Origin: Yponomeuta sedellus
Lineage: Eukaryota; Arthropoda; Insecta; Lepidoptera; Yponomeutidae
DNA length: 64,000 bases
Reading direction: 5' to 3'
NCBI GenBank assembly: GCA_934045075.1
Contig: OW203724.1
Coordinates: 10,341,473 to 10,405,472, forward strand
Shown here: piece after piece, positions 2,995 through 55,910 of the stretch
Numbering within the stretch: the stretch's first letter is position 1
How the letters are laid out: the number at the start of each line of letters is the position of its first letter
The notes under the pieces: generated by a model
Seen by the model: only the letters and a program-made list of their open reading frames with translations
Databases searched by the model: none
What the model was told of the DNA's origin: nothing
Program-made: the position numbers and the translations under genes

Positions 2995-4198
2995 AAACCA
3001 AGGTCTCACTATTTTTATTTTTAATGCACTAACCCGTGCTAAGGAACAAATTTAAAAACCTATTTAGAGGCTAAAAATTTCACCCATGCCGGGATTCGAA
3101 CCCGCAAGCTCTGGCTATCCGTGCCAGCGCTCTACCAATTGAGCCAATGGGCGACTCACGGCATCAGCGAAATTTCGAACCTCTTTACAATATTCTCTGT
3201 ATTACGTACAGGCAGCGACATCTGACTTAAGCAAATTGCATTACTTACAGCCCCGACTACCTACTTTGCACTTAGGTTTAACATCGGAACGATATCACTG
3301 TACCCACATGATTACACTATTTTTATTTTTAATGCACTAACCCGTGCTAAGGAACAAATTTAAAAACCTATTTAGAGGCTAAAAATTTCACCCATGCCGG
3401 GATTCGAACCCGCAAGCTCTGGCTATCCGTGCCAGCGCTCTACCAATTGAGCCAATGGGCGACTCACGGCATCAGCGAAATTTCGAACCTCTTTACAATA
3501 TTCTCTGTATTACGTACAGGCAGCGACATCTGACTTAAGCAAATTGCATTACTTACAGCCCCGACTACCTACTTTGCACTTAGGTTTAACATCGGAACGA
3601 TATCACTGTACGGGTACGGGTACTGTGGGTACAGTGATATCGTTCCGATGTTAAACCTAAGTGCAAAGTAGGTAGTCGGGGCTGTAAGTAATGCAATTTG
3701 CTTAAGTCAGATGTCGCTGCCTGTACGTAATACAGAGAATATTGTAAAGAGGTTCGAAATTTCGCTGATGCCGTGAGTCGCCCATTGGCTCAATTGGTAG
3801 AGCGCTGGCACGGATAGCCAGAGCTTGCGGGTTCGAATCCCGGCATGGGTGAAATTTTTAGCCTCTAAATAGGTTTTTAAATTTGTTCCTTAGCACGGGT
3901 TAGTGCATTAAAAATAAAAATAGTGTAATCATGTGGGTACAGTGATATCGTTCCGATGTTAAACCTAAGTGCAAAGTAGGTAGTCGGGGCTGTAAGTAAT
4001 GCAATTTGCTTAAGTCAGATGTCGCTGCCTGTACGTAATACAGAGAATATTGTAAAGAGGTTCGAAATTTCGCTGATGCCGTGAGTCGCCCATTGGCTCA
4101 ATTGGTAGAGCGCTGGCACGGATAGCCAGAGCTTGCGGGTTCGAATCCCGGCATGGGTGAAATTTTTAGCCTCTAAATAGGTTTTTAAACCAAGGTCT
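2995..4198. mobile_element. tRNA-core fold-back repeat, four units in a large palindrome, with 12-bp TSD
   Basis: Two units of about 310 bp on the minus strand (3,007-3,612) face two units on the plus strand (about 3,630-4,186), giving a palindrome of nearly 1.2 kb whose arms look identical by eye. Each unit contains a tRNA-like core (A box TGGCTCAATTGG, B box GGTTCGAATCC, anticodon-type stem CTGGC/GCCAG). The target duplication AAACCAAGGTCT sits at 2,995-3,006 and 4,187-4,198. The insertion interrupts a LINE ORF. One terminus is the unit 3' end (ACTATTTTTATTTTT in reverse), the other the internal site GGTTTTTAAA. Confidence 0.8.
3780..3852 (+). other. tRNA-like sequence inside fold-back repeat (not a functional tRNA)
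   Basis: Acceptor-type stem GCCCAT/ATGGGT, D-arm GCTC/GAGC, anticodon stem CTGGC/GCCAG and a T-loop with TTCGAAT can all be paired. The anticodon loop ACGGATA has C where U33 is required, and the T stem has a mismatch. Identical copies lie at about 4,089-4,161 (+) and, on the minus strand, at about 3,085-3,155 and 3,392-3,463. It is best read as a Pol III promoter of a retroposon. Confidence 0.65.
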
Positions 4199-4262
4199 TT
4201 TATGCTAGTCACTCTCTGTATCACCGTACCGCTCAAAGAGTACGATGCTACAATTGGTTTTT
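4199..4262 (-). pseudogene. CR1/Jockey-type LINE ORF2 fragment (5' part)
   Basis: The minus-strand frame reads VIQRVTSIKDLG, the residues expected just before LLDSKLSF in this enzyme family, and is the upstream continuation of the fragment at 2,275-2,994. The duplicated 12 bp at the junction shows that a single LINE copy was split by a later insertion. Confidence 0.65.
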
Positions 4263-4346
4263 ACGAAGATAAAATATTTCAATGTTAAATCGCGCTATAA
4301 CATTAAAATATCATAAATTGAGTGCCTAGAAAGTTAGAACATGGTA

Positions 4347-4400
4347 CAAGGAAGAATCGTATTCTACTGACAACTTTCAGTAGAATACGATTCTTCCTTG
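4347..4400. repeat. Perfect 24-bp hairpin
   Basis: Arms 4,347-4,370 and 4,377-4,400 are exact reverse complements with a 6-nt loop. A stem this long and perfect is either a very young palindromic MITE or a small-RNA hairpin. No gene context helps decide. Confidence 0.6.
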
Positions 4401-4401
4401 A

Positions 4402-5295
4402 GCTGAAAAGTATTATTTTCAGATTATGACTAATGAATATGTGATATGGATGGGCAATTGGGCATTGCAAGTTATAAAAATAATTTAATTTCTGCTACTG
4501 TTTGTTAGAAAAATTAATTTACCTAAAATTTTTTTTTTTATTTATATCAGGTATGTGAATCATGGATAACTAAATGGATCATGGTTATAGTCATAGGCTT
4601 AGATTTTACATTAACATTCACCAAACACAACGTAAATTCTTTACAAAAATACATTTTCGATTTCTGGTCAGAATGCTCCCTCATAATTTTGCTGAGGAAT
4701 TCGATGACATTTGTATAGTTGAACACAGGATGGGTGCGGGTAGTGAGCCCGCCATGCGACGAGTTGCGGTCGGATTTCCACGTGACCACGCATCAAGTGC
4801 TGAATAATTGAGTGTGCACTCCTGCTCTAAACAATAAAACTTACTTTGTTCAGTTAGCACACACGGCAACTTTTAGTGTTCAAATAAGTGTCAGTCATGC
4901 ATAACTACACATTCAGACCGACCTACGATCACAGGCAGATTGCAGATCGGCTGGATGAAGTTGACCGAGGATAGTTGACAGTGACCGGTCCTGGGGAGGC
5001 CTAAATCTAGAAGGGTAGGAGTACGGGCTTTTTGATCGATGTACTCGTATAACTCGCTATCAGACCTAAGCTTTTATAATGCCGCATCAACCGAACGGAT
5101 ACGAACAAACGAACGAATCAGTCGAGACATGTTTGTAATATGAATTGTTATATGAAATTTAATCCAGTTTTTACAGGAATCCTAGTCTGAAAAAAGGTAC
5201 AAACGGTTAACCCGGCTTGCATGAGATGAGACATTGTTACACAAGCCACGAGGAAGCCACGAGGCTGGTAGGCGTTAAACCTTTATGTTACATTC
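4402..5295. other. Intergenic, nothing recognised
   Basis: Short opposing open frames at 4,547-4,870 have no domain and probably arise by chance. No repeat family was recognised. Confidence 0.3.
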
Positions 5296-5649
5296 TTGTT
5301 ACTACGCAATAGTCTGATTAGAGAACGTTTTGGACTGAAAGAGGATGTAGTGACTAGAATTGAGAAAGGAATGTTGCGGTTTGGACATGTGGAGAGGATG
5401 AAGGAAGAAAGATTGACGAAACAAATATATATTGCGAATGTGAGTGGAAGGGCTGGTAAGGGACGTCCCAGACGGACTTACATCGACCAAATAGGGGATG
5501 TATTAGCAAAGGGAAAGATAAAAAGTACACGGAACCGGCGTGCGTGCATGCAACGACTTATGAACGTTGATGAAGCGAAGGTGATCTGTCAGGATCGTGG
5601 CAAGTGGCAGTCCCTGGTCTCTGCCTACCCCTCTGGGATACATGCGTGA
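5296..5649 (+). pseudogene. RTE-like LINE ORF2 C-terminus, 5'-truncated
   Basis: The frame holds the C-terminal segment typical of RTE-type endonuclease-reverse transcriptases: IRERFGLKEDVVTRIEKGML, a GHVERM motif, then KGRPRRTYIDQIGDVL and a final SAYPSGIHA before TGA. It lacks the endonuclease and catalytic palm, so it is a truncated copy. It runs directly into a long TATG repeat at 5,652, the simple-repeat tail such LINEs use. A longer sister copy lies on the minus strand at 19,886-20,850. Confidence 0.75.
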
Positions 5650-5651
5650 GG

Positions 5652-5843
5652 TTATGTATGTATGTTTGTATGTATGTATGTATGTATGTATGTATGTATG
5701 TATGTATGTATGTATGTATGTATGTATGTATGTATGTATGTATGTATGTATGTATGTATGTATGTATGTATGTATGTATGTATGTATGTATGTATGTATG
5801 TATGTATGTATGTATGTATGTATGTATGTATGTATGTATGTTA
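5652..5843 (+). repeat. (TATG)n microsatellite, LINE 3' tail
   Basis: About 47 near-perfect 4-bp units start right after the RTE-like stop codon. The same short tail (CATA on the plus strand) flanks the sister copy at 19,891-19,910. Here it has expanded greatly. Confidence 0.95.
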
Positions 5844-5844
5844 C

Positions 5845-6740
5845 TACGATTGTCAGTAACTTTCAGCTTTAAAATACCCTCTATTGTAACTATTGTTCAT
5901 CTTTTGTAACTATGGTGCGCAAGTTCAATTAAGCGCAGTATAACCTCAGCATAGCAAAGCTGTTTATGGATCAAAAAGACAGTCAGTTATGGCACTTTTC
6001 TTTTTATTTTATAAATTTTCTATTTTAAAAATGTATAGACTAGCTAATAATTTTGGAAGATTTTTCTGGATGGGTCGTGTTGATTCTTAATTTGATATTT
6101 TTATCCCACCTATTATTAAATGCGGTATGGAAAGTAACGTTGGAACAGTTCCTGTTTCTTAAAAACTCTTCAGAACAAGTCCTTACCTACGTCGTTCTGC
6201 ACATCGTCAGCTATGTAAATAGACTATTTTGTAAAAAAAAAACTTATTACAAGGCTCAAAGGTAGGCGAACTAAAGCACGTAAGTCCAAAACACAATTTA
6301 AATGGAGCAGTACAAAAAAACTTATTATAAAAATTACTTTATAACATTATTATTATTATGTCATTATTACATTAACGGAGAGCTGTCATGAAACAATGAA
6401 ATGTTATTTAACGAAAATGAAGCATAAGCGAACTGCTGTTGTAATTACCTTGCCTATACTGTATATAATAATATTTTAATCACAATTTGACGTATGTTCT
6501 TTAGCCCGCCGACCCTAGAATTAGTCCTTGGGGTCGCAAATATGCCGTTATTTATTATCCCTCACTCCGATTATTTGAAGGCCCGTCCTACCTTACCTAC
6601 TTTTTGAATAAAGTGCAATTATTAATGACTTGAAAAAGGTGCGACGACACTGAAACATGATAGGCATGAAATCGTACAAGTCGGACTTTACTTCGCCCCT
6701 TGGATTACGCCATTTGGTAGGGTCGAGTGACGCCCAGTGC
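5845..6740. other. Intergenic, nothing recognised
   Basis: AT-rich with short ORFs only. No domain, TIR or tandem repeat seen. Confidence 0.3.
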
Positions 6741-6742
6741 AA

Positions 6743-7090
6743 TCTATCTATATAAATAAAATTCAATGTACTGACTGACTCACTCATCAACGCCCAGCCC
6801 AAGCCGTTGGTCCTAAGAAGCCGAAATTTTGCACAGAAGGTCTATATATAATGTAGGCAAGAAATAAGACCGAATTTTTTGAAATTCAACCCCTAAGGGG
6901 GCGAAAAGGGTTGCCAAAATTTGTATGGGAGGTATAAAGAATGTTGTCTAATAATCTTGAAACTTAAAATAAACACTCTTCAACACAATTGATTGAACAC
7001 GTGTTTCACCGTTTTTATAAATTTACCCCTTAAGGTAGTGAACGGGGTTGCAAAAAAGTCCACGCGGATGGAGTCGCGGGCAAAAGCTAG
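6743..7090 (+). mobile_element. Non-autonomous Helitron-like element (Lep1-type resemblance)
   Basis: It begins TCTATCTATATAAATAAAAT, continues with GACTGACTCACTCATCAACG and a conserved body (CAACCCCTAAGGGGGCGAAA, GTGAACGGGGTTGCAAAA), and ends in a GC-rich segment that can pair (GCGG...TCGCGG) followed by CTAG and then T. A 5' TC start and a 3' hairpin plus CTAG are Helitron hallmarks, and no TIR or target duplication is visible. The body recurs as a tandem array at 45,600-47,745 and inverted at 48,645-48,975. The Lep1 name is from memory of lepidopteran elements. Confidence 0.6.
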
Positions 7091-7099
7091 TTGGCAATA

Positions 7100-7300
7100 A
7101 AATTAAACCTCCATCTGGCCGATCGACAATGGCCTCGGTCTAGGTGTAATTTCATGTTTGTGATGTCCTTGGCTGGTTACCATAGCACAAGGTATCCTAG
7201 TTTGGGACCAAGTCAATTGATCGTGTTGTGTGGAAGTTATTTATTTATCTTCATCTTCAAGTCTCAGAGGAGAGGCTCGCGAAAGTGTACATATTGATTA
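7100..7300. repeat. LINE/SINE tail block
   Basis: The segment 'GGTTACCATAGCACAAGGTATCCTAGTTTGGGACC' type sequence is the reverse complement of blocks at 29,225-29,310 and 38,090-38,160. It is a shared 3' body of several retroposons here. No coding content. Confidence 0.45.
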
Positions 7301-8295: not shown

Positions 8296-8300
8296 AATCT

Positions 8301-8350: not shown

Positions 8351-8394
8351 ATCTTTTCAAATTTTTTATTTCTTTACATCCACCTACTGAATTC

Positions 8395-9395: not shown

Positions 9396-9631
9396 TACAC
9401 CATGTAGGTATAGTATATGCTATCCATTGCATCCTAAGAATAAAGAAAAACTTATTCCATTTCCTGTAAGAAGTAAATTTTACATTGCATTTCTACTGTA
9501 CCTCCTCTCTGCTTTTTGCCCGCCTTCCAATATCAACCTTCTGCCAACTTCAACCTTCTGCCGTTGAATGGTAGAAAATGCTTGTGGCGTTGAGTCCGCC
9601 GTATTGTACGGTTAAAGTTCAATAAAAAATA

Positions 9632-9795
9632 TTAAAAACCTATTTAGAGGCTAAAAATTCCACCCATGCCGCGAACCCGCGACCTCTGGCTAACCGTGCC
9701 AGGTCGCGAGTTCGAGTCCCGGCATGGGTGGAATTTTAAGCCTCTAAATAGGTTTTTAAAATTGTCCTTAGCACGGGTTAGTGCATTAAAAAAAA
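9632..9795. mobile_element. tRNA-core fold-back repeat, short
   Basis: Left arm starts TTAAAAACCTATTTAGAGGC and reads the unit in reverse through the B box. The sequence then turns and reads forward through B box, GGCATGGGTGGAATT, CCTCTAAATAGGTTTTTAAA and on to the unit 3' end (GCACGGGTTAGTGCATTAAA). The A-box half is missing from both arms. The flanks CAATAAAAAATATT and CAATATAAAAAAATATT look like a decayed target duplication. Confidence 0.75.
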
Positions 9796-9849
9796 ACAAT
9801 ATAAAAAAATATTAATAAATAAATGTAAACACAATGTCATTAAGAGGCT

Positions 9850-11900: not shown

Positions 11901-12394
11901 GGGGGATGCCTTAACCCGACAAAAAATTGCGTTAGTATTTGGCAAACGAATCGAAGAGTAGTTTTCCTACACTGATAATATTTTTAAGAGACCTGTCTAA
12001 CGATAATTATGGTATAGGCAAAAAAAGCGTCCCTAATTAAGGTTAGGTACTATAAACATCTTTTTAACATTTTCTTCTACTTCTTCTTCTTCAGTCTATA
12101 TTAGTCCACTGCTAGACATAGCCGTCCCCTAATGAGCGCCATAGCGCATGGTTGTACCATCATTGAAGGGTAATGCCCATAATCCCCACGCTAGGCATGC
12201 GGTTTGGGGATCGCAGTGGGATTGTACTGCAGATTACATTTTATCTTAACGTTTTTAATAATGTATTTCTATGCCAAACTTCAGCTTTTTAGTAATTGTC
12301 GTCTCTGTGCTAAGCCGCAGACAGACAGTCGGGCGGATATATGCCGAAACTATTAGGGTTCGTTCGAAACGGTAAAATAAACATTGTTATCGAA

Positions 12395-12516
12395 ATTTTA
12401 AAAACCTATTTAGAGGCTAAAAATTCCATCCATGCCGCGATACGGGATACATTTTTAGCCTCTAAATAGGTTTTAAAATTGTCCTTAGCACGGGTTAGTG
12501 CATTTAAAATAATATA
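12395..12516. mobile_element. tRNA-core fold-back repeat, 122 bp, with 12-bp TSD
   Basis: The target duplication ATTGTTATCGAA is exact at 12,383-12,394 and 12,517-12,528. The insert begins with the inverted internal site (TTTTAAAAACCTATTTAGAG), turns near 12,447, and ends with the unit 3' end (GCACGGGTTAGTGCATTTAA). The tRNA-like core is almost wholly missing, yet both termini are kept. Confidence 0.8.
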
Positions 12517-12529
12517 ATTGTTATCGAAG

Positions 12530-15380: not shown

Positions 15381-15625
15381 ATGATTTCATCGCGTTTACA
15401 TGCAAAATATAGCAATTATCATTATTGCATTGTTCGAGAATGCAAAAACATTTCAATAAAGACCCCCGAAAAGTTGTGGATTAGTGTACCCAGTGAAATA
15501 AAAATTCCGAAAAATTGGCTCAATCTCCTAAAAAGAGACCGCGATACTTTATAGACTGAAACTCGGGTGTATTTATGTGAAGATCACTTTGATGTAAGTC
15601 CTCTAATTGTCACTGGGTCTGGCTA
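15381..15625 (+). pseudogene. Broken THAP-domain reading frame
   Basis: From ATG at 15,381 the frame gives a C2CH THAP zinc-finger pattern: CIVREC (C-x4-C), a tryptophan in KLWISVP, NWLNLL, and CEDHF (C-x2-H) near the end. A TAG codon interrupts it between RDRDTL and TETRVYLC, so the first ~57 codons and the CEDHF segment are separated. The AVPTRF-type motif is not seen. THAP domains bind DNA in chromatin factors and in P-type transposases; this copy could derive from either. Confidence 0.6.
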
Positions 15626-19556: not shown

Positions 19557-19830
19557 TTATATTCTTTTTGTTGCGCTAACCCGTGCTGAGGACAATTTTA
19601 AAACCCTATTTAGAGGCTAAAAGTTCCGCTCATGCCGGGACTCGAACCCGCAACCTCTGGCTAACCCGCTGCCTGTAAATAATACAGAGAATATTGTAAA
19701 GAGGTTCGAAATTTTGCTGATGCCGGCACTTGCCCATTAGCTCAATCACGAGAGCGCTGGTACGGTTAGCCAGAGGTCGCGGGTTCGAGTCCTGGCATGG
19801 GCGGAATTTTTAGCCTCTTAATAGGTTTTT
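19557..19830. mobile_element. tRNA-core fold-back repeat with 12-bp TSD
   Basis: The duplication AAAATAAAATCA is exact at 19,545-19,556 and 19,831-19,842. The left arm is a unit read in reverse from its 3' end through the B box to about 19,665. It then turns and reads forward through the body, a diverged A box (TAGCTCAATCACGAGAGC), B box GGTTCGAGTCC and the internal site ATAGGTTTTTAAAA. Confidence 0.8.
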
Positions 19831-28960: not shown

Positions 28961-28965
28961 GGTTA

Positions 28966-29092
28966 TATTATTTTTAATGTACTAACCCGTGCTAAGGACA
29001 ATTTTAAAAACCTATTTAGAGGCTAAAAATTCGCCGCTAAATTCGCTAAAAATGCCGGGATTCGAACCCGCGACCTCTGGCTATCCGTGCCT
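28966..29092 (-). mobile_element. tRNA-core fold-back repeat, truncated
   Basis: One terminus (TTATTTTTAATGTACTAACC) and the reverse-read B box (GGGATTCGAACCCGCGACC) are present. The second terminus and target duplication are not seen; sequence changes at 29,093. An internal 'TTCGCCGCTAAATTCGCTAA' insertion-like tract is unique to this copy. Confidence 0.6.
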
Positions 29093-34070: not shown

Positions 34071-34238
34071 TTTATTTATTTAATAATACTCGATATCTTC
34101 TAGGGGTATACGAGTATCTTTTTTATCACGTCAACAGAAACAAATCATGTAACGTAATGTAATGTACTGTACAGCAATGTCATGTAATGTAACGTCAGGT
34201 AATGTTTATCTTTTGTAAATCCTTGATTTTTTTTGCAG

Positions 34239-34450
34239 AGTCGGTGTGCTCCTTGGAGCTTTTAGAGCTGCGCGTGCCAAGCCACGTCCCGCTGGGCGCG
34301 CGCGTGCAATTGGCGTGCCGCTGGCGGCTGGCGCCGCGAGACATACTGTATTCGGTCAAGTGGTACAAGAACGGCAACGAGTTTTTCCGGCATGTGCCAC
34401 GTGACCTCGAGCCACGCCGACAATTCCTACTGCCTGGAGTCAAGGTTGAG
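34239..34450 (+). CDS. Beat-family Ig protein, exon with first Ig domain (N-terminal half)
   Basis: Part of a gene for a Beaten-path type cell-surface or secreted protein. In flies, Beat proteins bind Sidestep-family receptors in motor-axon guidance and synaptic matching. This exon encodes SLELLELRVPSHVPLG, the first Ig cysteine in QLACRW, and the Beat signature LYSVKWYKNGNEFFRHVPRD, ending LLPGVKVE. The acceptor is TTTTTTTGCAG at 34,238 and the donor is GTACGT at 34,451. It starts two bases into a codon and ends in phase 0. The signal-peptide exon is upstream and unseen. Four exons join in one frame of 267 complete codons. Paralog not assigned. Confidence 0.88.
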
Positions 34451-34594
34451 GTACGTACTTAGACTTTAGTCTAATACACACACATTATGTGCAATTTAAA
34501 GTAATTATTACGACGGCATTTAGCTGATATTTGCCTCTTTTTGTAGTATACTCGAACATCGTACTGCTATTGCTTAGCATCATCATCGTTATAA

Positions 34595-38649: not shown

Positions 38650-39535
38650 GAATATGAGAAAAATAAAACTGATTTTTAATACATATTCAAATCTAGCATA
38701 AAAGATTATTATCACCAATTTTTATTTGTTACATTTTTTTTTTATTCCGTCACAGATACATATAACAGATTAGTATCCCGCCAATTCATGTCGACTTTTT
38801 AAATTTTAAATATGGAACTCACCGCGTAATTGTTGCAAGTTATTCCGCTCAAAGTAGTTAGCGCTAAGTTCACACTGGCTGTTTAGAAACTCACATGGCC
38901 GCAGTATCTTTTTTAGTAAGTTTTTTTTACATAAAACTCTTCACAGCTGACAGTAGTTCTAATTTTAAAGTTCATTCCGGCCCTTAGATGGGAAGTAATT
39001 TTAATGAGTTTCCCTCTCTAGGGAGGAAAGCAGCATTTTCCACCCAATAATCAGATCAAAACAACACTACTTTCCGAGTATAAGAAAAGAAAAATACATT
39101 CATAATGTACTGCAAGCCGTGTGCAAAATACGCAGCCCACTTGCAGTGCTGTTCGACTCGACGTGCTGTTCGACTAACAACACGCCGACCACATGCAAAC
39201 AGCATACTTATAATTATTATAATACAGTGTATCAACTTCTTTGGAACTGCATTTTCCACTCCCATTGTTCGTTTCTCGGCGATCGATATCAACCCTTTTA
39301 TGTAAGATACAGGATCCCCTAGTTTAGGAGTCAGGGGCTTAACTAGTTGCCTACAGAACTGTAATTAACTTGGTCAATAAATTAATTACTAACATTGCAC
39401 TGATTGCTGTAACACAGGTTTTTAACCTAGCACAGCGTCAGAAGCTAATCGTTAATTTTGTATATAGCATTAGGTAAAACCATTTTGTAAAAGCTGTGTA
39501 CTAATGTTTTTGCCCAATAAAATATTCTATTCTAT
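38650..39535. other. Intronic, nothing recognised
   Basis: Second beat intron. Opposing short frames at 39,056-39,322 have no domain. Confidence 0.3.
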
Positions 39536-39539
39536 ATTT

Positions 39540-39675
39540 ATCACTGCTGGGGCGCGGGCGGGTCTCTTCTTCCATCTCAGAAAGATTAGGCCATACTCCA
39601 TTACGGGGGCTGAGTCCGGGTTGGTAGAGGATTGGAAGACAGTGGCAGGTCTTACTGTCAGAAGTTATCAAGTTG
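39540..39675 (+). repeat. Repeat X fragment
   Basis: 'GGCGCGGGCGGGTCTCTTC', 'GTCCGGGTTGGTAGAGGAT' and 'CTTACTGTCAGAAGTTATCA' match repeat X. It abuts the transposase remnant. Confidence 0.6.
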
Positions 39676-40243
39676 CCTATTGCCGACACAATAATCGCAT
39701 TTGGTCCAGGGAGAATCCCTGTATCAGCCAGACTAATAATCAAGTGCGTTTTTCGTTCAACTGTTGGTGTGGGATTGCGAAAAACCGGGTCCTCTTAGTA
39801 CATTTTTACGAAGGGCATTTGAATACGGAAAGGTATTTAGAAATACTTGAGATTTTAAGAAATGAGATAATTAATCTTCCGGTTGCAGAACGACAAAACC
39901 TTATTTTTCAGTAAGATGGGGCTCCGGCTCATAATAGTCACAGACCAAGGGACTATCTCAATGAACACTTTTGTCGCTGGATCGGGACAAATGGACAAAT
40001 AAAATGGCCGCCAAGATCCCCAGATCTAACCCCGTTAGATTTTTTTTTACGGGGTTATGTTAAAGTTTACTTTACAAGAACCAGTATGAAAGTGTCCACG
40101 AGCTACAAACAGAACTTAGACGTATTATTATGAATATCCACCACAACAAGATCAAAAGATCGACAGGGAGTGAAATAATCAAAAGAGTGCGATTTTGTAT
40201 TCAACAGGAGGGGACTCATTTTGAGCATTTGATAAATTGATTA
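39676..40243 (+). pseudogene. Tc1/mariner-superfamily transposase remnant
   Basis: Reads NNRIWSRENPCISQTNNQVR, NCWCGIAKNRVLL, VAERQNLIFQ, then a TAA stop directly before DGAPAHNSHRPRDYLNEHFC and WPPRSPDLTPLDFFLRGYVK. The DGAPAH and WPPRSPDLTPLDFFL boxes are the second and third catalytic-aspartate regions of this transposase group. Further stops follow in the C-terminal part. N-terminal DNA-binding region and TIRs are not seen. It lies in the second beat intron in gene orientation. Confidence 0.75.
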
Positions 40244-41471: not shown

Positions 41472-41705
41472 TACGTGCAAGTTGCGACGTCATAGTTTGA
41501 GTACGATTTGTATGGCGTGTTTTCGTACCACGTGACTAGAATGGCGTTTAGACAGGTCACATTATTAAAAGCATTCGTAGAGAAAAAAATTAAACATGAT
41601 TATTTATCCTTTAACAGTGTTTCGACAAGTTCTCCAGTATGCATTAATATCTCGTCTCCAGAACTCTGACTCTAACGGCTGCTTACCAGCGTCCATTGTC
41701 CACAG

Positions 41706-41965
41706 TGCTCCCTGACAAAGAGCCAACCATAGTCGGTTCTCGCATCCGGTACCGGATCGGCGACCGCGTCCAGGTGAACTGCACTTCAGGGCGGTCACGG
41801 CCAGCCACACGGCTCTTCTGGTACGTGAACGGCGAGCCTGCGCCGCCCTCGGCCGTGCTGCCGCTGCAGGAGTTCAAGCACCTTGACGGCCTCGAGTCTA
41901 CCAGACTCGGCCTCGACTTCAAGGCCAAGCCCAAGCACTTCCGGAATGGAAACATGAAATTAAAG
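41706..41965 (+). CDS. Beat-family Ig protein, exon with second Ig domain
   Basis: Acceptor TGTCCACAG, donor GTAAGA. The split codon joins to Val, giving VVVLPDKEPTIVGSRIRYRI, then GDRVQVNCTSGRSRPATRLF with the first cysteine of the second Ig-like domain, and WYVNGEPAPP. It ends FRNGNMKLK. The VLPDxxPxIxGxxxRYRxGDxVxxNCTS stretch is the most diagnostic Beat signature here. High GC and clean frame contrast with the surrounding repeats. Confidence 0.9.
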
Positions 41966-42093
41966 GTAAGATGACTTCGCCTCTTCTTGACACTCAAAAT
42001 ATAAAAATAGAACATTATTTTTGTAAGACATTTTTTTTGTACATAACGTGTAATTTCATACTGTGTAAGGACCTAATATGCTTAATGATATTG

Positions 42094-44829: not shown

Positions 44830-45575
44830 AAGATTTTAAAAGAAGTAGAGTCTAGGTAGAATCAAAACATATCACGTACCTCTACTACACTTTGTTTTGC
44901 TAACATTGAAACTTAATACGTGGTTATAAGAGCAAAATTGACCGTTTAAAATTGTTTCATTGATAAGAAGAGGCGATTACATAGTAAAATAAATATTTCT
45001 TTCCGCTAAAGCACGTGAAATCGTGTTGGTTGACCCGGTGGTGTTCATTTTTAGGGTTCAATAATATTCCGTTAGCAAGGAACACTTATAGTTTCGCCAT
45101 ATCCATCCGCCTGTATGTCTGTCGGTCTGTCCGCGGCTTAGCTCAGAAACGATTGGTAAGAAAAAGCTGAAATATTGCATAGATATACAAACATATTATT
45201 TACGTCGAGCATAGGAAATTAAAACATATAAAAAAAACTGTATTTATGGTGCCTCCCCTCTATTATGGTGGAGATCTACACAAAAATTGGGGTGATCTAC
45301 ACCTAAATTAGGGATGCATTTTTTTTGTTTCTCGCTAACACCATGTGTTGTATCGTTTGGGTTATCATTGGATTCCTCGTTCAAACCAGTAGCGCATTAT
45401 TATAATAAACTTAAGATTTAGATTTCTTATGGTCTTATTGCACTGCGCGAGCAAATAGCTAGGACAAAAGTAGGCATTTTTGAAATTACAAAAATGCACA
45501 TCTAATTAATCAAATTTTGACGACCGACGACACTTTTGCATTCGAATAATAATTTTGGTACATATTTTAATCTAG
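44830..45575. other. Intergenic with one dispersed repeat
   Basis: 45,050-45,210 holds the 'GTCTGTCCGCGGCTTAGCTC' repeat related to 23,170 and 12,310. No gene. Confidence 0.35.
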
Positions 45576-45599
45576 TGTGTCCAACTCTATATATATATA

Positions 45600-47744
45600 T
45601 ATATATATTAAATTCAACCCCTAAGGGGGGCGAAAAGGGTTGCCAAAATTTGTATGGGAGTTATAAATAATGTTGTCTTATTTTCTTGAAACTTAAAATA
45701 CATGCTCTTCAACACAATTGATTGAACCCGTATTTCACCGTTTTTTCTAAATTTAACCCTCAAGGGAGTAAACGGGGTTGCAAAATTTTGTTCTCCTGAG
45801 TGACTCACTCATCAACGCCCAGCCCGAGCCTTTGGACCTAGGAAGCTATAATTTTGCACAAAAAGTCTGTATACAATGTAGGTAAGGAATAAAACAGAAC
45901 TTTTTGAATTTCAACCCCTAAAGGGGCGAAAAGTGTTGCCTAAAATATGTATGAGAAGTATAAAGAGTGCTGTCTAATTTTCTTGAAACTTAAAATAAAT
46001 GCTCTTCAACACAATATTGATTGTATACGTGTTTCGCCGTTTTTTCTAAATTTGACCCACAAGGGAGTGAAAGAGGTTGCAAAATTTTGTTTCTTGAATC
46101 TTTTCCAAAATTGGACCTAGGAAGCTGAAATTTTGCGCAGAGCGTCTATATATAATGTAGACACGAAATGAGACCAGATTTTTTAAAATTCAACCCCTAA
46201 TGGGGCGAAAGGGGTAGTCAAAATTTGTGTGGGAAGTATAAAGCATGTTGACTAATTTTCTTGAAACTTAAAATAAATACTCTTCGACACAATTGACTGT
46301 ATACGTGTTTTTCCGTTTTTTCTAAATTTAACTCTTAAGGCAGGAAAGAGGCTGCAAAATTTAGTTCCTTGAATCTTTTCCAAAATTGAACCTAGGGAGC
46401 TGAAATTTTGCACAGAGGGTCTATATATAATGTTGACAAAGAATAAGACCGTTTTTTTTATTCAACCCCTAAGGGGGCAAAAAGGGCAGCCAAAAGTTTT
46501 GTTGGAAGTATAAAGAATGTTGTATTTTCTTGAAACTGAAAATAAATGCTCTTCAACACAATTGATTGAACACGTGTTTCGCCGTTTTTTCTAAATTAAC
46601 CGTTAAGGCAGTGAAAGAGGTTATAAATTTTGTTCCTTGAATCTTTTCCAAAATTGGACCTAGGAAGCCGAAATTTTGCACAGAGGGTCTATATATAATA
46701 TAGACAAGAAATAAGACCCGGGTTTTTGGAATTCAACCCCTAAGGGGGCGAAAAGGGTTGCCGAAATTTGTACGGGAGGTATAAAAAAAGTTGTCAAATT
46801 TTCTTGAAACTTACAATAAATGCTCTTCAACACAATATTGATTGTATACGTGTTTCGCCGTTTTTTCTAAATTTGACCCACAAGGGAGTGAAAGAGGTTG
46901 CAAAATTTTGTTCCTTGAATCTTTTATAAAATTGGACCAAGGAAGCTAAAACTTTGCACAGAGGGTCTATGTATAAAGTAGACAAGAAGAGAGATCGTTT
47001 TTTTTTTTAAATTCAGCCCCTAAGGAGGCGAAAATGGTAGCCAAAACTTGTGTGGGAAGTATAAAGAATGATGACAAATTTTCTTGAAACTTAAAATAAA
47101 TACTCCTCAACACAATTGATTGTATACGTGTTTCGCCGTTTTTTTCTAAATTTAACTCTTAAGGCAGGAAAGAGGCTGCAAAATTTAGTTCCTTGAATCT
47201 TTTCCAAAATTGAACCTAGGGAGCTGAAATTTTGCACAGAGGGTCTATATATAATGTTGACAAAGAATAAGACCGTTTTTTTTATTCAACCCCTAAGGGG
47301 GCAAAAAGGGCAGCCAAAAGTTTTGTTGGAAGTATAAAGAATGTTGTATTTTCTTGAAACTGAAAATAAATGCTCTTCAACACAATTGATTGAACACGTG
47401 TTTCGCCGTTTTTTCTAAATTAACCGTTAAGGCAGTGAAAGAGGTTATAAATTTTGTTCCTTGAATCTTTTCCAAAATTGGACCTAGGAAGCCGAAATTT
47501 TGCACAGAGGGTCTATATATAATATAGACAAGAAATAAGACCCGGGTTTTTGGAATTCAACCCCTAAGGGGGCGAAAAGGGTTGCCGAAATTTGTACGGG
47601 AGGTATAAAAAAAGTTGTCAAATTTTCTTGAAACTTACAATAAATGCTCTTCAACACAATTGATTGAACACGTGTTTTGCCGTTTTTCTAAATTTAACCC
47701 TTAAGGGAGTGAACGGGGTTGCAAAAACGTCAACGCCTACAAAA
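45600..47744 (+). repeat. Helitron-like tandem array, ~8 units of ~275 bp with a 3-unit higher-order duplication
   Basis: The block TTCAACCCCTAAGGG recurs at about 45,612, 45,910, 46,190, 46,462, 46,732, 47,012, 47,285 and 47,556. Each unit also has 'CTTGAAACTTAAAATAAATG', 'CACGTGTTTCGCCGTTTTTT' and 'GAATCTTTTCCAAAATTG'. The stretch from about 46,330 is nearly identical to that from about 47,154, a shift of 824 bp equal to three units, so part of the array was duplicated recently. Units correspond to the body of the single element at 6,743-7,090. Confidence 0.8.
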
Positions 47745-48641
47745 GGTAATATTACCCAACAACATCCAAGGATACAAGGTCAAGTAATAAAAACGAATTG
47801 CTAACGATATTACCTGATTGAATGGCTTCTATGACGACTACAAACTATTATTTTTCCGTCAGCCTATATATGGAGTGAATATTGTCTAATTTTCTTAAAA
47901 CTTAAAATAAATACGCTTCAACACCTTGAACCCGTGTTTCACCGTTTTTTCTAAATTTAACCCTTAAGGGTGTGAAAGGGGTTGCAAAATTTCGTTCTTT
48001 GAATCTTTTCCAAAATTAATTTTCTTTTTTCTTATTATTATTATTATTAATACTTTATTGCACCATAAAAATTGTACAATGCGGCGAACTTAATGCCATA
48101 AGCATTTTCTACCAGTCAACCGCAGGAGGTAGAAAGAAAACTTAGCAGGCGTGCAAAAAAAAAAAAAGGAAAAAGACAACCTTCCACATTATTATATACT
48201 TACACATATAATACACTAAACGTATATATTAAAATAATAGTATATAAATAATAAATAAATATATATATATATATATATACATACTCATCACATTACATAT
48301 AAATATATATATACATAAACATTACTATAAAATACATATGATATGATATCTTATTTTGCGCAAACGCCACTAGATGGCGGGCACTTCATTCTACATCACG
48401 GTATGGTTGTGTTTAACTTCACTCCATATAGAGTGACGGAAAAAGAGTAGTTTGTCGTCGTCATAGAAGCCATTCAATCATGTATTATCGTTAGCAAGTA
48501 GTTGTTACTTGACCGTGTATTTTAAAAACCTATTTAGAGGCTAAAAATTCCACTCATGCCGGGATTCGAACCCGCGACCTCTGGCTATCCGTGCCAGAGG
48601 TCGCGGGCGTGTATTCTTGGATGTTGTTGGGTAATATTACC
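47745..48641. mobile_element. Inverted-repeat element inside the Helitron-like array
   Basis: Starts GGTAATATTACCCAACAACA and ends TGTTGTTGGGTAATATTACC; ~135-bp inverted arms including GAATGGCTTCTATGACGACT. The inverted symmetry extends outward into Helitron-like sequence (GGGGTTGCAAAAACGT on both sides). AT-rich interior with TATA repeats and a retroposon 3' fragment at 48,040-48,120. No transposase. Confidence 0.65.
48522..48607. mobile_element. tRNA-core fold-back insertion, 86 bp, with 8-bp TSD
   Basis: The fixed internal terminus (TTAAAAACCTATTTAGAGGC) is on the left; the unit is read in reverse to GTGCC, then turns into CCAGAGGTCGCGGG and stops. CGTGTATT flanks it at 48,514-48,521 and 48,608-48,615. 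The opposite arm of the host element near 47,770 gives the uninterrupted site. The usual 3'-end terminus is missing here. Confidence 0.7.
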
Positions 48642-48975
48642 TTTTGTATGCGTGGACGTTTTTGCAACCCCGTTCACTCCCTTAAGGGTTAAATTTAGAA
48701 AAACGGGAAAACACGTGTTTAATCAATTGTATTGAAGAGCATTTATCTTAAGTTTCAAGAAAATTTTACAATATTCTTTATAATTCCCATACAAATTTTG
48801 GCAACCCTTTTCGACACTTAGGGGTTGAACTTAAAAAAATCCGGTACCATTCCTTGCCTACATTATATAAAGACTCTCTGTGCAAAATTTCAGCTTCCTA
48901 GGTCCAACGGCTTGGGCTGGGCGTTGATGAGTGAGTCAGTCAGTCAGTCAGGACTTTGAATTTTATATATTAGCA
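48642..48975 (-). mobile_element. Helitron-like unit, inverted arm
   Basis: Minus-strand copy of the Helitron-like 5' end (GACTGACTGACTCACTCATC, CAACGCCCAGCCC) through the CCTTAAGGGAG block, facing the plus-strand array across 47,745-48,641. Confidence 0.7.
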
Positions 48976-49275
48976 CCCGAGGGAAGAACATCTAATGTGG
49001 TATATAACGAAGTACTATGAATTATTATAATCACAACTAACCCCCTGTCAATAAGAACAAAGTAATCATACCCTCAGTTTTTGGATTTGCAGCCCACCCT
49101 TAGCGCGTCTCAGCGCTTGAGACATTTCGTCCTTTTTTAAAGAATGTTTAATCGACACAGTTCATTTTCAATAATTAACAAAAATCTATGGTTCTTCTGC
49201 GATTTGTCGCAGATTCAGATAATTTATCAGAACAAAATCGTCTGCATCTTTTATTGAAGCTTGTTGAACAACTAA

Positions 49276-49309
49276 AGTCCACGAGGACGGAGTCGCGGGT
49301 AAAAGCTAG
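49276..49309 (+). mobile_element. Helitron-like 3' terminus
   Basis: GTCCACGAGGACGGAGTCGC then GGGTAAAAGCTAG and T: hairpin plus CTAG end, as at 7,050-7,090. Confidence 0.6.
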
Positions 49310-49386
49310 TAACGATATAGGTATCATTTGGACACATTTACGATTGTTTTTTTGCTGCAGCGAAGATAAAAAACTTACTTTTTAGA

Positions 49387-49699
49387 TTTAAAAACCTATT
49401 TAGAGGCTAAAAGTTTCACCCATGCCGGGATTCGAACCCGCAACCTCTGGCTATCCGTACCAGCGCTCTACCAATTGAGCCAATGGGCGACTCACGGCAT
49501 CAGTGAAATTTCGAACCTCTTTACAATATTCTCTGTGTTACGTACTGGCAGTGACATCTGACTTAAGCAAATTGCATTACTTACAGCCCCGACCACCTAC
49601 TTTGCAGTTAGGTTTAACATCGGAACGATATCACTGTACCCACATGATTACATGATTTCCTTAGCACGGGTTAGTGCATTAAAAATAAAAATAGTGTAA
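49387..49699. mobile_element. tRNA-core fold-back repeat, 313 bp, with 12-bp TSD
   Basis: TTACTTTTTAGA flanks it exactly at 49,375-49,386 and 49,700-49,711. A full unit reads in reverse from the fixed internal terminus through B and A boxes and the body to CCCACATGATTACATG, then turns and ends with the forward 3' end (TTAGCACGGGTTAGTGCATT ... AAAATAGTGTAA). It is the clearest single-copy example and has intact A and B boxes. Confidence 0.85.
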
Positions 49700-49769
49700 T
49701 TACTTTTTAGACGTTAAATTATAGCCTATTACAGAGTAAAATGTATTTTAAAACACATTTTTTAGGTGT

Positions 49770-49950: not shown

Positions 49951-49959
49951 GTGGCCCGA

Positions 49960-50615: not shown

Positions 50616-50621
50616 GTGTTT

Positions 50622-50802
50622 TTTATAAAAACACGATTCCTCTAAGACACTCCCAAAATGCACTTTATACAGTGTGTGGTAAAAGGAAGGACTTGACCTG
50701 ACGTTGAAAATAATAATGGTTTTCTATTGTTATTTTCAAAGTCAGGACTGAGGAGGTCAGACTGCATTCGCAAATTGTTTTAAGGAATCGTGTTTTTATA
50801 AA
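50622..50802. mobile_element. 181-bp MITE with 20-bp perfect TIR and nested inner palindrome
   Basis: TTTATAAAAACACGATTCCT and AGGAATCGTGTTTTTATAAA are exact inverses. Inside, CCTGACGTTGAAAATAA and TTATTTTCAAAGTCAGG form a second hairpin (about 50,698-50,746). Confidence 0.75.
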
Positions 50803-50804
50803 TA

Positions 50805-52085: not shown

Positions 52086-52086
52086 A

Positions 52087-52285
52087 ATCTTTCATTCTTT
52101 TAATAAATTCAGAATAATTTGGGCTATTATAAATAAGGAAACCGGTAAATCCAAATCAGGAAATCGCGAACTTTCACTTAAAATAGATGATAAATTAACA
52201 ACCTCAAACTAAGACAATGCAACGGCTTTTGAACAGTTCTTTACAAATATTCCAATTGACAACATTTCAAAATTGGATAGAGCGA
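52087..52285 (+). pseudogene. LINE ORF2 fragment (region before RT domain)
   Basis: Reads IIWAIINKETGKSKSGNREL, SLKIDDKLTTSN, a TAA stop, then DNATAFEQFFTNIPIDNISK. This resembles the KxxWxxIxxETGK...FNxFFxNI linker before the RT in Jockey/RTE-like ORF2. Short, with a stop. Confidence 0.5.
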
Positions 52286-52453
52286 AAAAAACAATTTTGA
52301 GATTTGGCTTTGCACGTAAAAATTTATTTCAGTTTTTTCTGTGTTTGCATTTCCGAGAAAATGGTAAAAACACAAAATTACGCTGATGACGTCACACCAT
52401 GGCTCTCAGTGAACATGCCTGTGCCACGATAAAAAAAAAGTCAATTTCAAGAT

Positions 52454-52663
52454 TTAAAAACCTATTTAGAGGCTAAAACTTTCACCCATGCCGGGATTCG
52501 AACCCGCAACCTCTGGCTATCCGTGCCAGCGCTCTACCAATTGAGCCAATGGGCGACTCACGGCATCAGTGAAATTTCGAACCTCTTTACACTATTCTGC
52601 TGCCTGTGCGTAATACATAGAATAGTGTAAAGAGGTTCGAAATTAAAAATAAAAATAGTATAA
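52454..52663. mobile_element. tRNA-core fold-back repeat, 210 bp, with 13-bp TSD
   Basis: TCAATTTCAAGAT occurs exactly at 52,441-52,453 and 52,664-52,676. The unit reads in reverse from the fixed internal terminus through B and A boxes to CTTTACACTATTC, turns, and ends in the forward direction with AAAATAAAAATAGTATAA. Middle parts of the unit are missing on the forward arm. Confidence 0.85.
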
Positions 52664-52679
52664 TCAATTTCAAGATCTA

Positions 52680-53010
52680 ACCTAAAAAAATACTTTGTGT
52701 GTATTTAGTAATTTTTCGATACGAAATGATGGGCGATTATGTGACAACTTGGAAACCAATGAAACTGCAGTATTGCTTCGTGAACAGATTGAACAAAATT
52801 GAGTAGAGAGAAATAAATTTAACACTACACAAAGTTTGTTTACGTTACGCAAGGCAAGCCACACAACATAAGTATCAGGGTTACCATACAAAAGTAACAA
52901 ACTGGCAGCAAAAACACTCCGAACGCAGATAAAGGCTTTGCCAAAACAAAGTGCATTTAAAAAAAAGGAGCAACTACATACATAAGGGATGATGAATTGA
53001 ACTAAGCTGA
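52680..53010 (+). pseudogene. LINE ORF2 C-terminal remnant
   Basis: Short plus-strand stretches read like the end of a Jockey-type ORF2 (RYARQATQHKYQGYHTKV, then IKALPKQSAFKKKEQLHT) in shifting frames. It may belong with the fragment at 52,087. Confidence 0.35.
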
Positions 53011-53282
53011 TTTAATTGTATAAAAGAAAAAGATATTTGCAGATGTTAAAAAAATACAGAAACTGTTTTTTAACATGGCCCTGGCAATACTAAAATGACA
53101 TTTGTTTGTAACTATGTTTTTTTAGGATATTAGGCAAAGTAAAAATATTTTAAACTTTAAAAAATATAAGAAAAGGTGAGTGTTTCAGAAAATAAAAAAT
53201 ATGGGTCGTTTTATTTTGTATCTAGTTTCCTTTAAGACAATAAAAAATGTTTGCTAAAAAAATGAAATGTTTCATTGTCCAT

Positions 53283-53430
53283 CACCTCACCTCACCTCAC
53301 CCCACCCCACCCCACCCCGATATGACAAACATGTAAACATACAAGACCTGGGTGTTTTTTGTCCCTTGCCGGGGTTCGAACCCGGGACCTCTCGCATAGT
53401 AGTCAGAAGCGCTACCGCTTGTATGTAAAT
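53283..53430 (-). repeat. tRNA-derived SINE head with CCTCA/CCCCA repeats
   Basis: Minus strand: AAGCGGTAGCGCTTCTGACT and a perfect B box (GGGTTCGAACCCCGG), then a body like 1,988-2,250. Pentamer repeats CCTCA x3-4 and CCCCA x4 sit at 53,283-53,320. Confidence 0.6.
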
Positions 53431-53439
53431 GTTATGTTA

Positions 53440-54950
53440 TGTTTCTCGCACCCACCGCCACAAAAAATGCTTTTGTATTTTGATAAAAACATTAATTTAT
53501 CTCCTAATTAATTATTTCTCGCAACTGCCATAGACGATTTAAAATTTTGTCTCTTCAGTCACTCACTCCATGTTTGTACTTATGATAGTACTATTGATCG
53601 TGCAGACAGAACATTATTTTTACTCGATGATATAGGTCTGGTCAAATAATTAGAAAATTAACGCGTCTAATCTTGATTCCTTATGAAAGGAACTTAATTT
53701 TGAGCGATTATTTTTTTTCTAATGTCATTCTTCATGGTATTGGAAAAGCCAATTTACTTATTATTAGGTACCTACTCCAAACCTTCTACTTTAGTCTACC
53801 TTCAAATCACCTCAAAACGTGACTGAAGTAAGATGGTAAAGATTAAATGTTATCATCTTTTCTGTTGACGCTCAATTACGGAAAATAAGAGTATACAAAT
53901 CCTTGAACACCTTCTAACGTTTTCGACGAGACTAAAGCTTTACTAAACAACTCGGTCAAAAAACATACCCTAAAATAAAATGGCTATGGCTCGCTAGCAT
54001 ACCCCAAGGATAAAATCATCAATGCAGCCGCTACCGAATTGAGTGATATAGCTACGAAAAAACTCATTTATTACTGGCTAACACGATGTAGAGCAAAAAA
54101 AATCTTAATCATGGCGCGCAATCCCATTTTGCGTGCCACGCAGCCGTTAGGGCGCTGCATACGGTTTGCATTATGCATACCAATCCGTGGTAGTAAGGCC
54201 GCGCGAGCACAAGCTCCAATAAGTATTGTAATTTTGCCACTACTAGCCAGCTACTAGATTTCAGCAAACTCTATTAAAATAGGAACGAGTTATTTGCGCA
54301 TGTTAACACCATCACAATAAAATTACGAGCGTTTTACAGTCAATTCATAATTGAGTTTTTGATGCTGGATTCCTCGACCGCAATTTTGACTGCAGCAGAA
54401 TCGAATTTCTGAATACGCCACTCTCTATTCAACGCTCGTCCGAGTACCGCCGAAGCGATCGAAAAGTTCTGCCACTACTTTGCCCTAGGGCAATTTTGCA
54501 GGCGTACGTATCTAATTCGTAAGGTAGGTAATGTCCAACACGTTTTGAATCGGGCTCAATCGGGCTGTGATCAATTTATGATTAAACGTTTGCATTAAAG
54601 CAACAAACAGCATGAAATTATTGTCATTGTTTGCATCGGGTATCTAGAAAGTGGTAACAGACTGCAATCGTACCCAAAACGGTTCAAGCGAAAATAGGCG
54701 TCGATTGTACTTGGTAACTACATTTACCAGAAAATGTTTATCATAAATGCCATTCTCTGATAAACATTTTCATTCATTATCTGATAACATTCTCTGAGTC
54801 GTAATTAGATTTAGTTATGTAGATATTTATCATTTTCTAACGAAAACAATACATTCATTGGGGTTGTTCCACTAATTCCCATTGAAAATCCCCATTGATG
54901 GGGACTTGTGTACTTTTTGTCTGTAAATCCCCATTGGCGTATCTTTCATT
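53440..54950. other. Intergenic, nothing recognised
   Basis: Short chance ORF at 54,039-54,257; small hairpin AAAATGTTTATCA/TGATAAACATTTT near 54,730-54,772. Confidence 0.3.
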
Positions 54951-54952
54951 GT

Positions 54953-55910
54953 ACTATTTTTATTTTTAATGCACTAACCCGTGCTAAGGACAATTTTAAA
55001 AACTTATTTGGAGGCCAAAAATTCCACCCATGCCGGGATTCGAACCCGCGACCTCTGGCTATCCGTGCCAGCGCTCTTTCCAACTGAGCCAATGGGCGAC
55101 TCACCGGCATCAGTGAAATTTCGAACCTCTTTACACTATTCTCTGTATTACGTACAGGCAGCGACATCTGGCTGAAGTAAATTGCATCACTTACAGCCCC
55201 GAGTACCTACTTTGCAGTTAGGTTTTCACATCGGAATGATATCGCTGTACCCACATGATCATACTATTTTTATTTTTAATGCACTAACCCGTGCTAAGGA
55301 CAATTTTAAAAACCTATTTAGAGTCTAAAAATTCCACCCATGCCGGGATTCAAACCCGCGACCTCTGGCTATCCGTGCCAGCGCTCTTTCCAACTGAGCC
55401 AATGGGCGACTCACCGGCATCATTGAAATTTCGAACCTCTTTACACTATTCTCTGTATTACGTACAGGCAGCGACATCTGGCTCAAGTAAATTGCATCAC
55501 TTACAGCCCCGAGTACCTACTTTGCAGTTAGGTTTTCACATCGGAATGATATCGCTGTACCCACATGATCATACTATTTTTATTTTTAATGCACTAACCC
55601 GTGCTAAGGACAATTTTAAAAACCTATTTAGAGTCTAAAAATTCCACCCATGCCGGTATTTGAACCCGCGACCTCTGGCTATCAGTGCCAGCGCTCTTTC
55701 CAACTGAGCTAATTGGGCGACTCACCGGCATCAGTGAAATTTCGAACCTCTTTGTACTATTCTCTGTATTACGTACAGGCAGCGACATCTGGCTGAAGTA
55801 ATTGAAATTGAAATTAAGTAAACGCTCCTGGCACGGATAGCCAGAGGTCACGGGTTCGAATCCCGGCATGGGTGGAATTTTTAGCCTCTAAATAGGTTTT
55901 TACAATACAT
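54953..55910. mobile_element. tRNA-core fold-back repeat, three tandem units plus inverted partial unit
   Basis: Three units of about 310 bp on the minus strand (about 54,953-55,260, 55,262-55,570, 55,573-55,800) are followed by a plus-strand partial unit from the anticodon stem to the internal site (about 55,825-55,905, CCTCTAAATAGGTTTTTA). Termini follow the family rule; no target duplication is visible. All three have CAACTGAGC in the A-box arm and the third has extra changes, so it is older than the 2,995 locus. Confidence 0.8.

What the first reader, a model, noticed from the sequence alone, without database searches (positions are those of the whole stretch)
2995..55910. A retroposon-like family with a tRNA-like core that inserts as an asymmetric fold-back with fixed ends and 12-13 bp target duplications
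Ten loci share the pattern. In eight of them one terminus is the unit 3' end (AAAATAAAAATAGTRTAA) and the other is the same internal position (GCCTCTAAATAGGTTTTTAAA, about 50 bp before the 3' end) in inverted orientation. The turn point between them varies, giving inserts of 41 to about 1,190 bp. Exact flanking duplications occur at 12,383 (12 bp), 14,356 (12), 19,545 (12), 49,375 (12), 52,441 (13), 2,995 (12, including a few terminal A's); 48,514 has 8. Ordinary tRNA SINEs are head-to-tail with variable 5' truncation, and TIR transposons have symmetric ends. Constant duplication length with a constant inverted internal end suggests a defined cleavage or priming step: twin priming, snap-back second-strand synthesis, or a Penelope-type mechanism (PLE remnants are present in this window).
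Basis: partly seen in the sequence, partly recalled or inferred. Interest (0 to 1): 0.88.

Follow-up and report, generated by a model that had tools for sequence, protein, structure and literature searches.

The report
tRNA-core retroelement inserting as asymmetric fold-back
A stretch of a probably insect genome carries a short, protein-less jumping element with a tRNA-like core, mostly inserted as head-to-head fold-backs with two fixed, different ends and a 12-base target duplication, a layout that fits Penelope-type retrotransposition in which both cut DNA strands prime on the RNA.

Summary
Ten loci carry a 308/310-bp unit with a tRNA-like core. In 8 of 8 two-ended inserts one terminus is site P (GGTTTTTAAA, inverted) and the other site T (GTRTAA or a degraded form), 47 nt further 3'. 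Random pairings never gave 10 bp or more (0 of 4000). New: GTT follows 6 of 12 nicks in six loci, on both strands (random sets, any trinucleotide: 0 of 20000), but neither nick of J. Tandem units, head-to-head arms and a tail on one end are the published anatomy of Penelope-like elements (PLEs), whose enzyme cuts and extends both strands from two adjacent internal RNA sites. I read the family as a non-autonomous element inserted by a PLE-type enzyme through double target priming. It has no hammerhead ribozyme and no PLE protein was found in the frames scanned, so it is not filed as PLE or retrozyme. The host genome search did not complete; copy number, partner and host are open. New variant of a known kind.

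The parts
2995..4198 (-). Locus A: fold-back with about two units per arm (T end at 3007, about 3 nt short; P end at 4186-4189), 17-nt spacer 3612-3628; TSD AAACCAAGGTCT at 2995-3006 and 4187-4198
   Evidence: four unit copies identical over the shared length; joined flanks give a 140-aa open frame
9625..9806 (+). Locus B: P arm unit 259->177, T arm about 199->294 and on, turn at the anticodon-stem repeat GCCAG; degraded T end, 10-bp exact TSD (11-12 with one A-run indel)
12383..12528 (+). Locus C: 122-bp insert, P arm 256->206, T arm 226->302; TSD ATTGTTATCGAA
14356..14420 (-). Locus D: 41-bp insert made of little more than the two ends; TSD TTTACAACTTAA
19545..19842 (-). Locus E: 274-bp insert, P arm 253->87, T arm 184->289 then a degraded T end; TSD AAAATAAAATCA
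28963..29091 (-). Locus F: T end and forward arm only, no TSD found
48514..48615 (+). Locus G: P end only; P arm 253->177 with a short fold-back at GCCAG; 8-bp TSD CGTGTATT
49375..49711 (+). Locus H: 313-bp insert; P arm 254->1 and about 13-19 nt into a preceding unit, T arm 258->301; TSD TTACTTTTTAGA
52441..52676 (+). Locus I: 210-bp insert, P arm 254->108, T arm 88->133 then 279->303; TSD TCAATTTCAAGA(T)
54846..55913 (-). Locus J: about 2.7 tandem units on the T arm, short P arm (251->177), about 91 bp of non-element DNA (54858-54948) next to the T end; probable TSD ACAATACATTCA
3629..3936 (+). Reference 308-bp unit: tRNA-like core at unit 150-225 (box A at 158, box B at 202), P site after unit 253 (GGTTTTTAAA|), tail unit 254-300, T site after unit 300 (GTGTAA|)

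Best explanation
This is a family of short, protein-less retroelements inserted in trans by a Penelope-type reverse transcriptase/endonuclease. Shown by sequence: inserts bounded by a mostly 12-bp target duplication; the inverted arm always starts at P; the other end is T, 47 nt further along the same RNA sense; variable turn point; head-to-tail units within arms; preference for GTT after the nick on both strands in six loci. Inferred: (1) a sense RNA, often of several units, is made (the tRNA-like core could be a Pol III promoter, or readthrough may serve); (2) a dimeric enzyme cuts both strands 12 nt apart, leaving 3' overhangs; (3) each 3' end primes synthesis on the RNA, one at P and one at T, with up to about four bases of pairing at the A/U-rich P site; (4) the two first-strand cDNAs, both antisense, are joined at short inverted repeats or with templated filler, giving a head-to-head fold-back whose turn point varies.
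For: The inverted arm starts at P in 9 of 9 fold-back loci, and T ends the other arm in 8 of 8 two-ended loci. Exact duplication of 12 bp in 6 of 8 (J's) and 13 in one. GTT after 6 of 12 nicks in six loci, three at P and three at T; random sets never reach 6 for any trinucleotide in 20000 trials. Joined flanks at A give one open 140-aa frame across the junction; it looks like the end of a LINE ORF by eye, though Pfam matched nothing in its main part. Arms cross unit borders in A, H and J. Published matches: a PLE protein cuts and extends both strands and starts at two adjacent internal RNA sites that bound the genomic tail (PMC11167929); Penelope inserts have direct pLTRs plus an adjacent inverted pLTR, an optional 31-bp tail on one inverted end, partial tandems, and 8-10 bp duplications where present (PMC3846280). 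Short nonautonomous Penelope elements are reported in heliconiine butterflies (PMC6685494).
Against: No PLE protein found in the window and no sequence shown to be shared with an autonomous PLE. No hammerhead motif, which PLEs are said to carry. Duplications of 12 bp and a 47-nt tail, against 8-10 bp and 31 bp in the rotifer study. The published PLE cut preferred ATT, was primed without homology to the RNA, and its start sites did not differ between strands, whereas here P and T always take opposite sides and P junctions often share 1-4 bases with the target. J shows the T side can start outside the unit and has GTT at neither nick. G has 8 bp and F no duplication. Ten loci from one window.
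Confidence: 0.65

Rival explanations
1. A tRNA SINE mobilised by a LINE, with twin priming at a favoured A/U-rich internal site. The second DNA end anneals to UUUUUAAAUUU because most AT-rich overhangs can pair there.
For: tRNA-like core with box A and box B; primer ends can pair by 1-4 nt at P in several loci (by eye); a LINE-type reverse-transcriptase fragment lies in the window.
Against: The core is about 150 bp inside the unit; 9 of 10 loci are fold-backs; the inverted arm starts at P in 9 of 9; other A/T-rich stretches of the unit (for example unit 222-230) are not used; the duplication is near constant; GTT after the nick is not the TTTT/AA nick I recall for APE-type LINEs.
Confidence: 0.18
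2. Two RNA species: a Pol III transcript ending in the T5 run at P and a readthrough RNA ending at T, each copied from its 3' end by one of the two nicked strands.
For: P lies directly 3' of GGTTTTT, a possible Pol III terminator, after a small predicted hairpin (no better than shuffles).
Against: Bases beyond the T5 run are present in the insert at C, D, H and I, where the adjacent target does not supply them; random choice between two RNAs should also give P-P and T-T inserts (0 of 8 seen).
Confidence: 0.08
3. Snap-back second-strand synthesis from a single T-primed cDNA.
For: B and G turn at the anticodon-stem inverted repeat GCCAG, A at a GTAC palindrome.
Against: Self-templated synthesis would copy back to T, so the ends would be T-T; it does not explain a constant P end 47 nt inside.
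Confidence: 0.05
4. A DNA fold-back transposon or MITE moved by a transposase.
For: Inverted arms and near-constant target duplication.
Against: The two termini are not inverted repeats of each other: the 41-bp insert D shows none by eye; arms contain head-to-tail units and vary in length; 12 bp is not a TSD length I recall for a DNA superfamily.
Confidence: 0.03

Closest known systems
Endonuclease-containing Penelope-like elements (Penelope/Poseidon type)
   Same: Tandem or partial-tandem units; head-to-head inverted copy; one end longer by a short tail; target duplication; both strands cut and extended; AT-rich target (PMC3846280 passages; PMC11167929 parts 1-2 of 4)
   Different: No RT/GIY-YIG ORF; tRNA-like core; no hammerhead found; tail 47 nt, duplication mostly 12 bp; GTT instead of ATT; P and T always on opposite sides
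Metazoan (non-LTR) retrozymes
   Same: About 300-bp AT-rich non-coding units in tandem, suspected to rely on PLEs (PMC7229834 and PMC8969392 passages)
   Different: No type I hammerhead; fold-back insertion with fixed P/T ends was not in the passages read
Short nonautonomous Penelope elements of heliconiine butterflies
   Same: Short, PLE-classified, in an insect (PMC6685494 passage)
   Different: Their end structure and any tRNA-like core are not given in the passages read; sequences could not be compared
tRNA-derived SINEs of Lepidoptera
   Same: tRNA-related region with box A and box B; similar length (PMC8010984 passages)
   Different: In SINEs the tRNA part is at the 5' end, with a body and a 3' tail recognised by a partner LINE

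Membership tests
Penelope-like element | ORF with telomerase-like RT and GIY-YIG endonuclease | tested here: not met
   No such ORF in the element and none found in read-through Pfam scans (frame +3 beyond 30 kb not scanned)
Penelope-like element | Tandem or partial-tandem units | tested here: met
   A and J tandem; H arm crosses the unit border by under 20 nt
Penelope-like element | Adjacent inverted copy, head-to-head, with a short tail on one end only | tested here: met
   8 of 8 two-ended loci; F and G lack one end
Penelope-like element | Hammerhead motif in the repeat | tested here: not met
   No Rfam hammerhead match (whole window; locus A, relaxed); no core pattern in the reference unit
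Penelope-like element | End sequences shared with an autonomous PLE of the host | not testable with these tools
   Host genome search did not complete
Retrozyme | Self-cleaving hammerhead in each unit | tested here: not met
Retrozyme | Circular RNA intermediate | not testable with these tools
   No RNA data; the 91 bp at J rather suggests a linear RNA with a flank
tRNA SINE | tRNA-derived head with Pol III boxes at the 5' end | tested here: not met
   Boxes present at unit 158 and 202, core starts about 150 bp from the unit start; where the RNA starts is unknown
tRNA SINE | Single-orientation inserts with variable 5' truncation | tested here: not met
   9 of 10 loci are fold-backs
TIR or fold-back DNA transposon | Both termini inverted repeats of each other | tested here: not met
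   P and T termini differ; none seen by eye in the 41-bp insert D

The most novel reading that the evidence does not exclude
The family represents a ribozyme-free, tRNA-core class of PLE parasites in which every integration is a coupled double priming: one side of a 12-nt staggered cut at AAC(N12)GTT-like sites starts at P and the other at T of the same RNA. That would explain the head-to-head inverted copy and one-sided tail of Penelope elements in general, without an antisense template or self-priming.
Probability: 0.37. Interest if true: 0.76.

Novelty: new variant of a known kind. Interest (0 to 1): 0.56.

Why it matters
How PLEs make their inverted, tailed inserts is unsettled: the rotifer study proposed self-priming, perhaps on an antisense template, and the in vitro study says later steps are yet to be validated. 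A tiny element with fixed P and T ends, a 41-bp minimal product, a near-constant 12-bp stagger and a two-strand target preference gives clean integration products to test this. It would also extend the set of short elements that may exploit PLEs beyond ribozyme carriers.

Tried and rejected
Self-cleaving ribozyme near GGTTTTTAAA: none by Rfam at gathering threshold over the window or relaxed over locus A, nor by core pattern in the reference unit (one relaxed CTGANGA hit falls in the E copy at 19586, not in the others). The below-threshold mir-5014 match (68.3 bits, gathering 101) at the turn of A reflects the perfect hairpin, in my reading, not homology. Stem-loop in the tail (GCAC...GTGC): predicted in four of the five pieces folded, but no piece beats its shuffles (z -0.33 to 0.31) and E and F carry changes in it, so it is not used as evidence. 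Looking for the family elsewhere by exact patterns: 0 matches in viral contigs and genome contigs; these collections are viral and prokaryotic. Protein search with a spurious ORF of the element: 3 candidates, none at E 0.001 or better. Snap-back alone and DNA transposition: see rivals. The listings of my paper searches on nonautonomous Penelope, SINE and tRNA terms showed no paper on a tRNA-core PLE element; I did not open most of the listed papers, and subscription papers are mostly absent, including two PLE papers that I tried. In one search the P arm of J was given in the wrong strand and that row was ignored; its letters were read.

Changed after re-checking: odds of the best explanation 0.66 to 0.65, of the SINE rival 0.17 to 0.18 and of the novel case 0.38 to 0.37, because the duplication at J rests on a later scan and the arms of A and H stop near a unit border.
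Full report
What was checked. I read all ten loci and turned them so that the unit 3' end (T) is on the right. The window is probably from an insect: it holds two exon-like frames with weak immunoglobulin-domain matches that look like a beaten-path gene (the gene name is recalled), but no tool named the host.

The unit. Tandem Repeats Finder gives 308 bp in locus A and 310 bp in J. In unit coordinates (1 = window 3629) box A is at 158 and box B at 202. The tRNA-like core (unit 150-225) is found by ARAGORN in nine unit copies (eight called Ser-GGA, one Ser-TGA) and by Rfam in ten places at only 29-40 bits. By eye it lacks the long variable arm of a true tRNA-Ser and has C where tRNAs have U33 (recalled rule), so it is a tRNA-like relic or a promoter rather than a working tRNA. 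The unit RNA folds better than shuffles (z -4.40), and unit 120-238 partly pairs with itself (63% over 124 columns).

The ends. P is the position after GGTTTTTAAA (unit 253), T the position after GTRTAA (unit 300); the 47 nt between them are the tail. Of ten loci, eight have both ends, always P inverted on one side and T on the other (A, B, C, D, E, H, I, J); G has P only and F has T only. T is degraded in B, C and E and about 3 nt short in A. The turn point varies: P arms stop at unit 177 in B, G and J, at 206 in C, 108 in I, 87 in E, about 226-234 in D, and just past a unit border in A and H. Turns use inverted repeats (GCCAG of the anticodon stem in B and G; GTAC in A) or short filler that looks copied from next to the junction (A, C, H, J; read by eye).

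Target duplications. Exact lengths at the ends are A 12, C 12, D 12, E 12, H 12, I 13, B 10, J 0. A window-wide scan for exact 12-16 bp repeats, which lists 36, then showed a 12-bp repeat that abuts the P end of J exactly and whose other copy lies 91 bp from the T end. In I the thirteenth base is a T that the P end also has. In A, D and E three or four bases next to P could belong to target or element; that the maximum is still 12 argues that the stagger is 12 and that the primer end pairs with the RNA there. Random pairings gave no repeat of 10 or more in 4000. G has 8, its other end being truncated. F has none within about 3.9 kb. Joining the flanks of A gives one 140-aa open frame across the junction, evidence for a clean insertion with duplication; it resembles a LINE ORF end by eye, but Pfam matched nothing in the 119-aa part tested.

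Target choice. In the six loci A, C, D, E, H and I the base after the nick is G in 7 of 12, the next T in 9 of 12, the next T in 10 of 12, and the base before is A in 8 of 12. GTT follows 6 of 12 nicks, three at P (A, C, E) and three at T (C, D, H); in 20000 random sets no trinucleotide reached 6. J, found later, has GTT at neither nick (printout), making 6 of 14; B and G were left out because their boundaries are uncertain. The six duplications are AT-rich, 56 of 72 bases. The same preference on both strands suggests that one endonuclease makes both cuts.

Template. All four unit copies in A are identical over their shared length, so A is recent. A (both arms) and J (T arm) were copied from at least two or three units; the P arm of H runs only 13-19 nt into a preceding unit, and the arms of A also stop within about 10 nt of a unit border. 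An RNA 5' end near that border is therefore not excluded. In J about 91 bp of unrelated DNA lies between T and the duplication; the simplest reading is a readthrough RNA carrying the source flank (3' transduction), which points to a linear RNA. In J two of the three tandem units share a change that the P arm lacks (GACTC against GCCTC), so the template units were perhaps not all alike; this is one site and weak.

Mechanism. Both arms are antisense to the unit when read from their own end, so both were copied from sense RNA, one from each 3' end of a cut with 12-nt 3' overhangs (inference). Two start points on the RNA are required. This is what was shown in vitro for a PLE from Anolis: both strands cut and extended, starts at two adjacent internal sites, and the genomic tail equal to the stretch between them (PMC11167929, parts 1-2 of 4 read, plus a term search). 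The rotifer Penelope anatomy is the same in kind: direct repeats, an adjacent inverted repeat 37 bp shorter, an optional 31-bp tail on one inverted end, partial tandems; some copies there had no duplication (PMC3846280, passages). What is new is that the two starts take opposite sides in 8 of 8 two-ended inserts, whereas the in vitro study saw no difference in start site between strands.

Membership. It works like a PLE insert. It is not filed as a PLE, because it has no RT/endonuclease ORF and no hammerhead, nor as a retrozyme, because it has no hammerhead. It does not meet the 5'-head and single-orientation features of a tRNA SINE. Whether a host PLE shares the P-T region could not be tested: the genome search was unreachable in ten attempts (calls in the membership table).

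Limits. Ten loci of one window; no independent genome; no RNA data. The Pfam scans left frame +3 beyond 30 kb and most of the region beyond 56.66 kb unscanned apart from the gypsy ORF and one short frame at 63793-63987. A perfect 561-bp palindrome such as A could in principle be an assembly artefact, but eight other loci show the same kind of fold-back. Other papers named in this report were seen as passages only or as search listings.

Noticed in passing
window 56111-62300: Ty3/gypsy LTR retrotransposon with an intact 1592-codon gag-pol frame and LTR stretches identical over at least 300 bp: a recent insertion.
   Followed up: partly
window 54858-54948: About 91 bp of unrelated sequence with repeats of CCCCATTG between the T end of J and its 12-bp duplication; possible 3' transduction from a source copy.
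   Followed up: partly
window 45536-49310: 278-bp tandem array (about 7 copies, 45832-47726) with an inverted partner copy at 48610-48944; a hairpin plus CTAGT near 49310 resembles a Helitron 3' end (resemblance recalled).
   Followed up: no
window 34193-34459 and 41648-41971: Two exon-like frames with weak, below-cut-off immunoglobulin-domain matches, resembling an insect beaten-path gene (name recalled), so some inserts may lie in introns.
   Followed up: no
window 3562-3678: The turn of locus A scores 68.3 bits to Rfam mir-5014 (below gathering), probably because it is a perfect hairpin; such fold-backs could be miscalled as miRNA genes.
   Followed up: partly
window 2130-2250 and 53330-53420: Two other tRNA-related repeats appear by eye in single orientation without fold-back, unlike this family.
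   Followed up: partly
window 39474-40130: Frames resembling the C-terminal part of a mariner-like transposase (recalled motif); no Pfam match for the first frame.
   Followed up: no
window 3748-3866 (unit 120-238): The unit is itself partly self-complementary around the tRNA-like core, as if it arose from an older fold-back insert.
   Followed up: no
window about 15426-15596, + strand frame 3: A THAP domain match just below the Pfam cut-off (22.3 bits against 23.9, E 0.00023), perhaps a P-type transposase or host gene remnant.
   Followed up: no
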